Positions 45,498 through 49,746 of a stretch of DNA of 64,000 nucleotides are shown piece after piece. How positions within the stretch are numbered: the stretch's first letter is position 1; each line of letters starts with the position of its first letter. The translations under genes were made by a program, and so were the position numbers. The notes beneath the pieces were generated by a model, which was not told where the DNA came from, searched no databases, and saw only the letters and a program-made list of their open reading frames with translations. Source of the stretch: an uncultured Acidobacteriia bacterium (GTDB lineage Bacteria > Acidobacteriota > Terriglobia > Bryobacterales > Bryobacteraceae); the NCBI GenBank assembly GCA_903875575.1, contig CAIQWJ010000073.1, forward strand, positions 1 through 64,000, written 5' to 3'.

Positions 45498-45524
45498 GCG
45501 GGGCAGGCTTCGCGCCTGCCCCGC
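45498..45524 (-). terminator. 11-bp hairpin between ilvC and cimA
   Basis: GCGGGGCAGGC and GCCTGCCCCGC are perfect complements with loop TTCGC. On the minus strand the stem is followed by a T-rich stretch (TCTATTTTCT). It probably ends or weakens the ilvBNC transcript before cimA. Confidence 0.75.
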
Positions 45525-46656: not shown

Positions 46657-47187
46657 TCAGGCGACTGCCACACCGGCACCGGTGGGCACTGGTGGCTGCA
46701 ATCGAAGCTTTTTCGTTTCGAGCGACATGGCTACAGCGCCGGAACGCGAAACGTCGCTTTCACCGTAGCTGCGCATGACATCGATAAACTCGTCGAGCTT
46801 TTCCGTTACGCCGGTCGCTTCCAGCACGAAGCCTTCGAGCGATGAATCGATCACGCGCGCCTGGAAGATTTCCGCTTCCTTCAGCACGGCGGTGCGATGT
46901 TCCTGCGTACACTTGACGCGCAGCAGGACCATTTCGCGAATGACGGAAGGCGATTCCGTCATGTCAGTGGCCTGGAGTACGTTGACGAGTTTGCTCATCT
47001 GTTTGATGACCTGGGTGCGAAGGCGCTCTTCCACGTCGACCGTGATGGTCATGCGGGAAAGTTCGGGGTCCTGCGTTTTCGCGACTGTGAGGCCCTCGAT
47101 GTTGTAGCCACGCGCGGAGAGTACGCCGGTGACACGCAGCAGGGCTCCCGGCTTGTTCTCAAGAAGAATGGAAATTGTTTGCAGCAT
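46657..47187 (-). CDS. ilvN: Acetolactate synthase small (regulatory) subunit
   Basis: This 176-residue protein carries an N-terminal ACT domain (MLQTISILLENKPGALLRVTG, ARGYNIEGLTVAKTQDPELSRMT) and a C-terminal ALS small-subunit domain (FVLEATGVTEKLDEFIDVMRSYG). It binds valine and gives feedback control to IlvB. The ATG before LQTISIL is chosen since the family starts there; an ATG eight codons earlier, ten bases after ilvB, is also possible. It lies between ilvB and ilvC. Confidence 0.95.
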   Translation of the reverse strand: MLQTISILLENKPGALLRVTGVLSARGYNIEGLTVAKTQDPELSRMTITVDVEERLRTQVIKQMSKLVNVLQATDMTESPSVIREMVLLRVKCTQEHRTAVLKEAEIFQARVIDSSLEGFVLEATGVTEKLDEFIDVMRSYGESDVSRSGAVAMSLETKKLRLQPPVPTGAGVAVA

Positions 47188-47221
47188 TATTTTCTCTTTC
47201 TTTGGCTTCATGCGCTACGGG

Positions 47222-48994
47222 TTAATCGGCCGCCACGGGCTCAACGGGCCCCAGGACCATTTCGTAAACCGCGCCGCCGGCGGGCACCATCGGATAGACA
47301 TTTTCCATGGGCGCCACTTTGACGTTGAGCAGGTACGGGCCGGGCGTTTTGAACGCCGTTTCGAGGGCTTCGGCGAGTTGCTCCGGCTTATCGATGGTGC
47401 GACCGGTAAAGCCGTACGCACCGGCCAACTGCACCACATCCGGAAAACATTCCAGCGCGACGGAACTCAGCCTGTTGTTGTAGAACAGCGTCTGCCACTG
47501 GCGAACCATGCCGAGGCAACCGTTGTTCATCACGATGATCTTGATGGGCAGGCTGTGTGCCGCGATGGTGGAGAGTTCCGGAATCGACATCTGGAAGCCG
47601 CCATCGCCGCAGATCGCTATGACCAGTTTGTCCGGGCGGGCGAACTGCGCGCCGATCGCGGAAGGCACGCCGAAGCCCATGGAACCGAGACCGCCGGAAT
47701 TCACCCAGAGGCGCGGCTCGTTGAAGCGGATCAACTGGGCGGCCCACATCTGGTGCTGACCCACGTCCGAAGTGACGACGGCCTGACCGCCGGAGAAGCG
47801 ATCGATTTCATCCATCAAATGCTGGGGACGGATGACGTTCGGATCATGGCGGCGATCATAAGGATGCTCTTCCGCCCAACCGCGAACTTTCTGCCACCAT
47901 GCGACGCGGGCGGGGGCGTGCGCCTCACGCATTTCGGGCGCAAACTCCTGCACTGCTTTGTTGAGCTTCTGGAGAACGTGCTTGACGTCGCCGACGATCG
48001 GAATATCGGGATTGCGATTCTTGCCGACTTCGGCCGGATCGATATCGACATGGATGACGCGGGCGTGTTTGGCGAAGGAGCCAAGCTGGCCGGTGACGCG
48101 ATCATCGAAACGAGTGCCGAGCGCGATGAGGAGATCGCATTCGGTCATGCCCATGTTGGCGGCATAGCTGCCGTGCATACCGGGCATGCTGACGAAATTC
48201 GGATGGGAGGAAGAGAGTCCGCCGAGAGCCATCAGGGTGCAGACGGCGGGCATGTCGACGAGTTCCACGAGTTCAGTGAGTTCGGCCGAGGCCGCTCCGG
48301 CGAGAATGCCGCCACCCGCATATACAAAAGGACGTTCGGCTTCCCAGATCAACTGGGCGGCGCGACGGATCTGGCCGGCGTGGCCTTCGGTGAAGACCTT
48401 GTAGCCAGGGAGGTGGATGGAATCGACGGGCACGTAGTGACCCATGGCCTGAAAGACATCCTTGGGGATATCGACCAGGACGGGGCCGGGGCGGCCACTG
48501 GAGGCGAGATAGAAGGCCTCATGCACGATGCGCGGGAGTTCGGCGACGTTGCGCACCATGAAGTTGTGCTTGGTGGCGGGGCGGGTGATGCCGAAGGTGT
48601 CGGCTTCCTGGAAGGCGTCGCTGCCGATCAGCTTGGAGTGGACCTGACCGGTGATGGCGACGAGGGGGATGGAATCCATCAGAGCGTCGACGAGGCCGGT
48701 GACGAGATTGGTGGCGCCGGGGCCGGAGGTGGCACAGCAGACGCCGGTCTTGCCGGTGGCGCGCGCGTAACCGGCTGCGGCGAAGGCGGCGTTCTCTTCG
48801 TGGCGTACCAGAATGTGCTTGATGTGGGAATCGTAAAGCGCGTCGTAGAACGGCAGCGTTACGCCACCGGGGTAGCCGAAGAAGATATCGACGCCTTCGC
48901 GCTGGAGGCATTCGAGCAGCATCTCGGCACCGGACATGAGACGGCCGGCGTCGCCTGCGGGGGTCTTGCTTTGCGCCACGTTTGGAGTTGGCAT
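47222..48994 (-). CDS. ilvB: Acetolactate synthase large (catalytic) subunit
   Basis: This 590-residue thiamine-diphosphate enzyme makes acetolactate and acetohydroxybutyrate. The N-terminal domain has FGYPGGVTLPFYDAL and HEENAAFAAAGYARATGKTGVC with the catalytic Glu of HEENA, then GPGATNLVTG. The C-terminal domain has the ThDP motif GDGGFQMSIPELSTIAAHSLPIKIIVMNN, read around residues 460-490. The start ATG has an AGGAG site. It is the first structural gene of the ilvBNC operon, with a regulatory leader in front. Confidence 0.97.
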   Translation of the reverse strand: MPTPNVAQSKTPAGDAGRLMSGAEMLLECLQREGVDIFFGYPGGVTLPFYDALYDSHIKHILVRHEENAAFAAAGYARATGKTGVCCATSGPGATNLVTGLVDALMDSIPLVAITGQVHSKLIGSDAFQEADTFGITRPATKHNFMVRNVAELPRIVHEAFYLASSGRPGPVLVDIPKDVFQAMGHYVPVDSIHLPGYKVFTEGHAGQIRRAAQLIWEAERPFVYAGGGILAGAASAELTELVELVDMPAVCTLMALGGLSSSHPNFVSMPGMHGSYAANMGMTECDLLIALGTRFDDRVTGQLGSFAKHARVIHVDIDPAEVGKNRNPDIPIVGDVKHVLQKLNKAVQEFAPEMREAHAPARVAWWQKVRGWAEEHPYDRRHDPNVIRPQHLMDEIDRFSGGQAVVTSDVGQHQMWAAQLIRFNEPRLWVNSGGLGSMGFGVPSAIGAQFARPDKLVIAICGDGGFQMSIPELSTIAAHSLPIKIIVMNNGCLGMVRQWQTLFYNNRLSSVALECFPDVVQLAGAYGFTGRTIDKPEQLAEALETAFKTPGPYLLNVKVAPMENVYPMVPAGGAVYEMVLGPVEPVAAD

Positions 48995-49064
48995 AGTAAC
49001 TGATTGCTCCTGATTCTTTAAAAACTAATATCTGGGTGTCTTTTTATGTGATGGCAAAAAAGAA

Positions 49065-49131
49065 AGGCCATCGGCTGGGCTCGACTGCACCCCGCTGATG
49101 GCCTCGGAAGTTTTTGACTTAGCCGAAAGCC
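49065..49131 (-). promoter_or_regulatory. ilv attenuator: antiterminator arm and intrinsic terminator
   Basis: On the minus strand, AGGCCATCAGC and GCCGATGGCCT pair (eight pairs, one mismatch, two pairs) and are followed by TTTCTTTTTT, an intrinsic terminator about 70 bases before ilvB. A second arm, GGCTTTCGG at 49131-49123 just after the stop codon of the leader peptide, can pair with CCGAGGCC at 49107-49100, which includes part of the terminator's 5' arm. The two folds exclude each other. A ribosome stalled in the leader would free the antiterminator arm; a ribosome at the stop codon would cover it and let the terminator form. Confidence 0.8.
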
Positions 49132-49218
49132 TCAGACGGGGCCGGATACGACGACCACGGTAATGCTGACTACAGGTGTGGTCAGGGTAATGAGGCGGGC
49201 TGAGAAGCTGTACGGCAT
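49132..49218 (-). CDS. ilv leader peptide (ivbL-like), 28 residues
   Basis: A 28-codon frame begins at an ATG with a GGAGGT site eight bases before it. The peptide is dominated by branched-chain residues and threonine: LITLTTPVVSIT at 9-20, four consecutive valines at 21-24 and a last Val at 28. In total seven Val, two Ile, two Leu and four Thr. That composition, the position before ilvB and the hairpins after it are those of an ilv attenuation peptide such as E. coli ivbL. An upstream ATG five codons earlier is in frame but inside the ribosome site. Its only role would be as a sensor of charged tRNA-Val, -Ile and -Leu. Confidence 0.8.
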   Translation of the reverse strand: MPYSFSARLITLTTPVVSITVVVVSGPV

Positions 49219-49307
49219 TGCCAGAACCTCCATTTTAGAACGGAAAGGATTGGAAATGCAAGTTCGGTTGAGTATAAATATTTGTTATGGGAGAGCCAAA
49301 CCTTTTG

Positions 49308-49331
49308 CCACAGATGAACACAGATGAACAG
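49308..49331. repeat. CACAGATGAA tandem intergenic repeat
   Basis: CACAGATGAA occurs twice in tandem (CCACAGATGAACACAGATGA and on). This phrase is familiar from intergenic regions of many planctomycetes, verrucomicrobia and acidobacteria; its function is unknown. It lies in a G/T-rich stretch upstream of the ilv leader. Confidence 0.6.
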
Positions 49332-49746
49332 GGATTTTGGGGTTTTGGTGGCTTTTCGGTGGGTTTTGGTGGCTTTCGGTGGCTTATCGATTTTTGTTAA
49401 AGTGTTGATTCCATGTGGCTTTTTGGCTTCGTTCCGCGTTTTTTTGTTTTCGGCTGTACGGTTGGCTGTTTCGGTGCGGGCGGAGGGCGTCGAACCCGAT
49501 TCCCGGGTCGCCTCGGGTTGTTTGCCGGGTTTTCCTGGGTTATTCCCGGGTAGGGCTGAATTGCTAAGTGGTTTATTTTCGGTATGTTCCGGGGATCTAG
49601 TTGTCCCCGCGTTTTTTTGGGGGTTTTGGGGCTCGTGCGCGGGGGGAGGGTGGTGGAGGGCGGAAATAAGGTTGCCAGAGGTTGCCATATCATGAGTTTT
49701 ATCATGGCGGGTCGGCGGAATATATGGATGTTTATGATTCTATTGG
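49332..49746. other. G/T-rich non-coding stretch with short tandem repeats
   Basis: This region has strong strand bias with G and T on the plus strand. Its first 55 bases are made of GGTGGCTTTTCGG-type units. Near 49619-49660 there are five runs of G that could form a quadruplex (GGGGG TTTT GGGG and GGGGGG A GGG). Frames through it give low-complexity peptides rich in Lys, Thr, Pro or Gly with no recognisable domain. I see no gene. Confidence 0.6.

What the first reader, a model, noticed from the sequence alone, without database searches (positions are those of the whole stretch)
49065..49218. Attenuator with a Val-rich leader peptide in front of ilvB
A 28-codon frame with a GGAGGT site has seven Val, two Ile, two Leu and four Thr, including four Val in a row. 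Right after its stop codon an arm (49123-49131) can pair with the 5' side of an intrinsic terminator (49065-49104 plus U-run). This is the complete logic of ribosome-mediated attenuation of ilvBNC. I know of it from enterobacteria and actinobacteria and am not aware of a described case in acidobacteria.
Basis: partly seen in the sequence, partly recalled or inferred. Interest (0 to 1): 0.75.

Follow-up and report, generated by a model that had tools for sequence, protein, structure and literature searches.

The report
Valine-sensing leader switch before ilvB
A tiny valine-rich peptide gene with two competing RNA hairpins appears to switch on the genes for making valine and isoleucine when these run short, and it is kept across most of a family of acidobacteria.

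Summary
On the minus strand upstream of ilvB (ilvBNC, then cimA) lie a 28-codon Val-rich frame (49218-49132) and an intrinsic terminator (49105-49056). It is conserved. A covariance model hits 136 of 150 family genomes. The terminator has compensatory change in 5 of 8 pairs over 32 loci. Native antiterminator arms pair better than arms swapped between species in 31 loci and in 40 further loci (p = 5e-5 each). Leader frames are 64% Val/Ile/Leu over 72 loci, other frames 20% and 4%. The correction: GGAGGT is probably no ribosome site. It lies directly behind the -10 box of a conserved promoter, is absent from the other 15 loci of the genus, and precedes the predicted transcript start. The leader is thus probably leaderless or nearly so. 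Sister attenuators precede cimA, ilvN and leuA in some relatives. No expression data exist. It is a new member of a known kind in a little-studied phylum.

The parts
49271..49288 (-). AT-rich stretch upstream of the -35 box, possible UP element
   Evidence: Similar stretch seen by eye in many relatives (sequences printed); function inferred
49256..49261 (-). -35 box TTGCAT
   Evidence: TTGYRT-N16..18-TANNNT in 70 of 72 family loci, spacing 17 in 59
49232..49237 (-). -10 box TAAAAT (18-nt spacer)
49226..49231 (-).
   Evidence: Directly after the -10 box; absent from the other 15 genus loci; not beyond chance in the window
49222..49225 (-). predicted transcription start zone (7-10 nt after the -10 box)
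   Evidence: Inferred from the -10 box; no RNA data
49132..49218 (-). leader peptide ORF MPYSFSARLITLTTPVVSITVVVVSGPV*
49123..49142 (-). antiterminator 5' arm: last leader codons, stop codon and GGCUUUCGG
   Evidence: duplex -29.7 kcal/mol, swap tests in two locus sets
49089..49107 (-). antiterminator 3' arm, overlapping the terminator 5' arm
49056..49105 (-). intrinsic terminator (hairpin 49105-49064, U-run 49063-49056)
47222..48994 (-). ilvB, acetolactate synthase large subunit
   Evidence: TIGR00118, 774.9 bits
46657..47211 (-). ilvN, acetolactate synthase small subunit
   Evidence: TIGR00119
45542..46564 (-). ilvC, ketol-acid reductoisomerase
   Evidence: TIGR00465
43906..45477 (-). cimA, citramalate synthase (isoleucine branch); co-transcription with ilvBNC not shown
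   Evidence: TIGR00977, 689.7 bits

Best explanation
A ribosome-mediated transcription attenuator senses charged tRNA-Val (and tRNA-Ile/Leu) for the ilvBNC(-cimA) genes. Transcription starts a few nucleotides before the leader AUG, so the leader is translated from a leaderless or near-leaderless RNA (inferred from promoter geometry). With enough Val, the ribosome runs to the stop codon and covers the antiterminator's 5' arm, which includes the last codons and the stop; the terminator forms and RNA polymerase stops before ilvB. When Val is scarce, the ribosome stalls in the VV/VVVV codons, the arm is free, it pairs with the terminator's 5' side as that side emerges, and transcription continues. 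Shown here: the parts, their conservation and covariation, and their mutual exclusivity on paper. Inferred: ribosome stalling, the amino acid response and the transcript start.
For: Leader of 28 codons with 7 Val in front of ilvB. In 72 family loci the frame is 64% Val/Ile/Leu in the 14 codons before the tail (other frames 20% and 4%). Terminator: 99.2% of cells paired, 5 of 8 pairs with change on both sides, 0 of 500 shuffles, slid versions at most 61.5% paired. Antiterminator: native arms -28.8 against -25.4 kcal/mol swapped, permutation p 5e-5 (the least that 20,000 permutations can give), 31 of 32 family loci (L027 dropped by the arm finder); 40 further family loci, -30.1 against -27.1, p 5e-5, 35 of 40 stronger than the mean of their own swaps (loci mostly found with the model, so somewhat preselected for likeness). 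With the ribosome placed at the stop, the terminator is the MFE in 32 of 32 family loci; with the ribosome upstream and RNA polymerase just past the 5' arm, the antiterminator forms in 31 of 32. Model R1 hits 136 of 150 family genomes, 104 of 109 of good quality, 73 of 76 genera; genomes that supplied the model are among them and most hits were not inspected one by one. Leader codons roughly follow the gene: Leu-rich before leuA (L202; gene), Ile-rich before ilvN (L199, L208), Ile/Leu-rich before cimA (L198, L212, L213, L214, L221) (genes). Leader start codon 5-18 nt behind the -10 box in 65 of 70 loci (other frames 4 and 1 of 70); strong SD pairing inside the predicted RNA in 3 of 70 leaders (10 of 70 if the DNA is taken regardless of the predicted start), against 30 of 32 ilvB starts, the latter the best of the in-frame ATGs, which favours ilvB.
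Against: No RNA or ribosome data. In the complete RNA with a stalled ribosome, the MFE still holds the terminator in 23 of 32 family loci (the window itself switches), so the antiterminator must win kinetically there. In the fixed column register the antiterminator pairs 83.9% of cells, and its 6 pairs with change on both sides are no more than versions slid by 2 or 3 columns show, though those pair at most 49.6% of cells; the register slips by one between clades. Swap test weak within the genus (p 0.04, 16 loci). The named Bryobacterales contig L052 has the promoter and an ATG 6 nt behind the -10 box, but the frame is not BCAA-rich and the model finds nothing there at E up to 10. 14 of 150 family genomes give no model hit. 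My terminator criterion found none in L030 and only a poor hairpin in L013. Two of 72 loci lack the promoter pattern; 5 of 70 start more than 18 nt from the -10 box. cimA leaders carry as much Leu as Ile, so the codon match is not strict.
Confidence: 0.9

Rival explanations
1. Same attenuator, but with an ordinary SD-led leader: transcription starts further upstream and GGAGGT (49231-49226) is a true ribosome site.
For: GGAGGT sits 7 nt before the ATG in the window. Leaders of two loci from other acidobacterial lineages look SD-led by eye (L180, L195). A few family loci have an AAGGA-like site and a longer distance from the -10 box (L018, L022).
Against: The other genus loci carry GGGGTT, GAAAGT, GGAAGT, GATAAT, AGAACT and the like at this place. 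A promoter with its -10 box directly before the site is kept in 70 of 72 family loci. The motif is not beyond chance.
Confidence: 0.15
2. A metabolite- or tRNA-binding leader RNA (riboswitch or T-box) controls the terminator, and the small frame is incidental.
For: A terminator with an alternative fold exists.
Against: No Rfam family matches here at gathering threshold. The reading frame itself is conserved, with control codons that fit the pathway, and the antiterminator arm starts inside the frame and includes its stop.
Confidence: 0.03
3. The small frame and hairpins are chance or a decayed remnant; the terminator simply ends an upstream transcript.
For: Terminator-like sites in the region occur at about the shuffled rate (8 against 6.6).
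Against: Conservation, covariation and frame bias across the family.
Confidence: 0.01

Closest known systems
ilvBNC attenuator of Corynebacterium glutamicum (PMC11857589, passages read)
   Same: Same genes; BCAA-codon leader; transcript start one nucleotide from the leader start codon; alternative hairpins and terminator; three Val-to-Ala changes abolish valine dependence there
   Different: Peptide of 15 aa with three Val, different hairpins, different phylum; here the antiterminator arm includes the leader's last codons and stop, with a conserved tail
Leaderless IlvL, LeuL and TrpL leaders of Streptomyces lividans (PMC8079986, passages read)
   Same: Leaderless leader peptides before ilvBHC, leuA and trpE
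   Different: 13-aa IlvL; a different peptide (MRTRILVLGKRVG)
Leaderless trpL of Sinorhizobium meliloti (PMC7298713, passages read)
   Same: Attenuator RNA beginning with the leader's start codon
   Different: Trp operon, other phylum; the S. meliloti peptide also acts in trans, which was not tested here
E. coli ilvB and ilvG attenuators (recalled)
   Same: Val/Leu/Ile codon-rich leader, terminator and antiterminator
   Different: SD-led and unrelated in sequence (recalled)
ilvB1NC attenuator of Mycobacterium tuberculosis (PMC13236596, passages read)
   Same: BCAA-rich uORF before ilvB1, conserved in mycobacteria; terminator
   Different: 166-nt leader; no acidobacteria named in the main text

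Membership tests
Ribosome-mediated transcription attenuator (trp/ilv type) | Short translated leader rich in codons for the pathway product | tested here: met
   7 of 28 Val; 64% Val/Ile/Leu in frame over 72 loci; translation itself not shown
Ribosome-mediated transcription attenuator (trp/ilv type) | Intrinsic terminator between leader and first gene | tested here: met
Ribosome-mediated transcription attenuator (trp/ilv type) | Antiterminator mutually exclusive with the terminator, exposed or hidden by the leader ribosome | tested here: met
   (computation only; complete-RNA MFE of the stalled state favours the terminator in 23 of 32 loci)
Ribosome-mediated transcription attenuator (trp/ilv type) | Expression responds to the charged tRNA of the control codons | not testable with these tools
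   needs RNA or reporter data
Leaderless-leader attenuators (C. glutamicum ilvBNC type) | 5' end of the RNA at or within a few nt of the leader start codon | tested here: inconclusive
   promoter geometry supports it: start 5-18 nt behind the -10 box in 65 of 70 loci, 13 nt in the window; no TSS data
Rfam RNA families, T-box included | Match at gathering score | tested here: not met
   only a tRNA in the whole window

The most novel reading that the evidence does not exclude
A family-wide, undescribed class of leaderless attenuators in Bryobacteraceae-like Acidobacteriota. One reusable tail (RNA GGCCCCGCCUGA, read as Gly-Pro-Ala-stop) serves as coding end, stop codon and antiterminator arm at once. 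It has been placed before ilvB, cimA, ilvN and leuA, with the control codons shifted towards each gene's product.
Probability: 0.65. Interest if true: 0.6.

Novelty: new member of a known kind. Interest (0 to 1): 0.48.

Why it matters
It puts classical ribosome-mediated attenuation into Acidobacteriota with comparative evidence. [quoted passage not shown] It supplies a covariance model that hits 136 of 150 family genomes. It suggests that attenuation leaders in this phylum can be leaderless, as reported for actinobacteria and a rhizobium. It also offers a case in which a peptide's last residues look dictated by RNA pairing rather than by peptide function (inference).

Tried and rejected
Second model hit in the window's own genome (G000:C74:108808-108880, 34.3 bits): no leader stop in place, taken as an ordinary terminator; likewise the weak hit on contig C83 (L207). 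Model hits in L201 and L205 follow frames that are not BCAA-rich, beside a gene that looks TPR-like by eye; rejected as attenuators.

Cognate leaders before other amino acid genes. trpE: 15 loci, all from the sister families and none from the window's family (one of them off frame), 4 with a two-Trp frame that is not shared. hisG: 30 loci, 22 of them from the window's family, 4 off frame, 1 weak. leuA-type: 30 loci, 2 weak. None looked conserved; this is a rough negative control. The leuA case with a leader (L202) stands alone: of the homologues found, L209 and L210 have none, and L211 was not examined.

Whole-RNA MFE as a test of the stalled state favours the terminator in 23 of 32 family loci and is told as evidence against. 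An earlier run of that script stopped with an error. An alternative in-frame CTG start 7 nt behind the -10 box in the genus was set aside because 3 of the 15 loci with a promoter call lack it. Phylum loci: 28 outside the family were scanned; L196 was mis-anchored, leaving 27, of which 7 have Val/Ile-rich frames (L169, L173, L177, L180, L181, L190, L195). Sister-family loci L043 and L045 got weak -12.5 kcal/mol hairpins, which I did not count as terminators.

Full report
WHAT IS THERE. Everything lies on the minus strand. ilvB starts at 48994 and is followed by ilvN, ilvC and cimA (NCBIfam TIGR00118, TIGR00119, TIGR00465, TIGR00977). Upstream, 49218-49132 encodes MPYSFSARLITLTTPVVSITVVVVSGPV*. 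A terminator hairpin at 49105-49064 (-25.4 kcal/mol) is followed by TCTTTTTT. No Rfam family matches at gathering score. The 201-nt leader region folds better than all 200 shuffles (z -3.66).

WHOSE IT IS. The best-matching named contigs in genome contigs are an Acidobacteria and two Bryobacterales MAGs with 71% IlvB identity (L051-L053), so the window is probably from Bryobacteraceae or a near family (Acidobacteriota, Terriglobia; lineage). The genomes searched bear handles, not names.

CONSERVATION OF THE LEADER. An IlvB-like match was found in 58 of 61 own and related genomes; 50 loci were taken and scanned for small frames. All 32 loci of the window's family have a Val/Ile/Leu-rich frame; 26 of 32 end in Pro-Ala or Pro-Val, and the stop is TGA in 28 and TAG in 4. 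Of the 17 loci of the sister families (L031-L047) 15 have a frame ending mostly in SPG, GPG or CPG, more weakly BCAA-rich in genus g21; L044 has one too, found with the model; none was found in L039. Seven of these keep a clear U-tract terminator by my criterion (L031-L036, L046), and L044 shows one by eye. Over 72 family loci the frame is 64% Val/Ile/Leu in the 14 codons before the tail, the other frames 20% and 4%.

THE TWO HAIRPINS. The terminator script found a hairpin in 31 of 32 family loci; L030 failed on its weak U-tract and L013 got a poor hairpin. The antiterminator is a long stem. In the window GCCCCG-CUGA-GGC-UUUCGG (49142-49123) pairs with CCGAGGCC-AUCAGCGGGGU (49107-49089), at -29.7 kcal/mol. 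Leader codons and the UGA stop are part of it. Where the leader tail changes, the other arm changes with it: L021 TTCGCC with GGCGAA, L050 GGCCTGCTTGA with TCAGCAGGC. Swapping arms between species weakens pairing (31 family loci: -28.8 to -25.4, p 5e-5, the floor of 20,000 permutations; L027 was dropped by the arm finder). Forty further family loci, from genomes not used in the first test, gave the same (-30.1 to -27.1, p 5e-5; 35 of 40 stronger than their own swaps); most were found with the model and so were preselected for likeness. Within the genus alone the effect is slight (p 0.04, 16 loci), and the 7 sister loci give p 0.02. Column counting on 32 loci gives 99.2% paired cells and 5 of 8 compensatory pairs for the terminator. 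For the antiterminator in one fixed register it gives 83.9% paired cells, against at most 50.8% in slid versions; its 6 of 12 pairs with change on both sides are matched by two slid versions and so say little.

LOGIC. With the ribosome at the stop, the terminator is the MFE in 39 of 39 loci (32 family, 7 sister). With a ribosome upstream and the polymerase just past the 5' arm, the antiterminator forms in 31 of 32 family and 5 of 7 sister loci. Without a ribosome, the terminator forms in 29 of 32 family loci but in only 2 of 7 sister loci. In the complete RNA with a stalled ribosome the terminator is still the MFE in 23 of 32 family loci, so control there would be kinetic (all). The window itself switches to the antiterminator in this state.

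THE START. The pattern TTGYRT-N16..18-TANNNT is present in 70 of 72 family loci, 59 with spacing 17. The first in-frame start codon lies 5-9 nt behind the -10 box in 26 of 70, 10-18 nt in 39 and further in 5; the two other frames give 4 and 1 of 70 within 5-18 nt. The genus has 12-13 nt in 15 of 15 loci with a promoter call, leaving a 5' UTR of about 3-7 nt. Pairing to the anti-SD inside the predicted RNA is strong in 3 of 70 leaders, in 10 of 70 if the predicted start is ignored, against 30 of 32 ilvB starts, the latter chosen as the best of several in-frame ATGs. GGAGGT-N7-ATG is expected by chance in 36 of 100 shuffles of the window. I conclude that the leader is probably leaderless or nearly so. 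This is inferred; no transcript start has been measured. Leaderless genes were predicted in 3 of 3 acidobacterial genomes, 13.3% on average (PMC3160421, passages read).

SPREAD AND SISTERS. A covariance model from the 32 loci hits 136 of 150 family genomes, 104 of 109 of good quality and 73 of 76 genera (source genomes are included, and most hits were not inspected). Of 28 phylum loci outside the family, 27 could be read and 7 have Val/Ile-rich frames; L180 and L195 look SD-led by eye. Other genes carry the same kind of tail: cimA (L198, L212, L213, L214, L221; TIGR00977 in all five, L213 a fragment below the cut-off), ilvN (L199, L208; TIGR00119 over the cut-off), an ACT-domain gene with only a weak ilvN match (L200) and leuA (L202...ILNLSLLALGLLTGPA*) (leaders; genes). 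The cimA leaders hold Leu as well as Ile. trpE (sister families only), hisG and common leuA-type upstream regions show no shared cognate leader. Exceptions: L052 has the promoter and an ATG 6 nt behind the -10 box but no BCAA-rich frame and no model hit, and 14 of 150 family genomes give no hit.

KNOWN OR NOT. It works like the ilv attenuators of enterobacteria (recalled) and most like that of C. glutamicum, whose transcript starts one nucleotide from the leader start (PMC11857589, passages). Leaderless leaders are also reported in S. lividans (PMC8079986, passages) and S. meliloti (PMC7298713, passages). Three searches for acidobacterial BCAA attenuators listed no such paper; of their listings I read passages of a few only. 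A survey of leader genes counts Acidobacteria among groups with a peak of leader genes, but its main text holds no 'ilv' or 'solibacter' (PMC4833913, passages). The library lacks most subscription journals, so older comparative work may exist.

VERDICT. The attenuator is very likely real by comparison (0.9); leaderless initiation is likely (about 0.8). It is a new member of a known kind, with a tail design worth naming.

Noticed in passing
45498-45524 (-): A strong terminator-like hairpin (11 pairs, 10 of them GC, then TCTATTTTCT) between ilvC and cimA; cimA may be transcribed apart from ilvBNC or only partly with it.
   Followed up: no
L037, L038, L040-L043, L045 (sister family, genus g21) and L047: The leader tail and the CCGGGGC counter-arm are kept before ilvB but no clear U-tract terminator was found; control may be translational or Rho-dependent there. 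L044 of the same genus does show a U-tract.
   Followed up: partly
L198, L199, L208, L200, L202, L212, L213, L214, L221: Sister attenuators with the same kind of tail before cimA, ilvN, an ACT-domain gene and leuA in relatives.
   Followed up: partly
L169, L173, L177, L180, L181, L190, L195: Val/Ile-rich frames before ilvB in other acidobacterial families; two look SD-led by eye (L180, L195).
   Followed up: partly
49300-49400: Direct repeats (CACAGATGAACACAGATGAACA and repeated GGTTTTGGTGGC-like units) just upstream of the promoter, seen by eye.
   Followed up: no
47129-49003 (+): A 624-codon open frame lies antisense over ilvB; most likely a shadow of the GC-rich ilvB frame.
   Followed up: no
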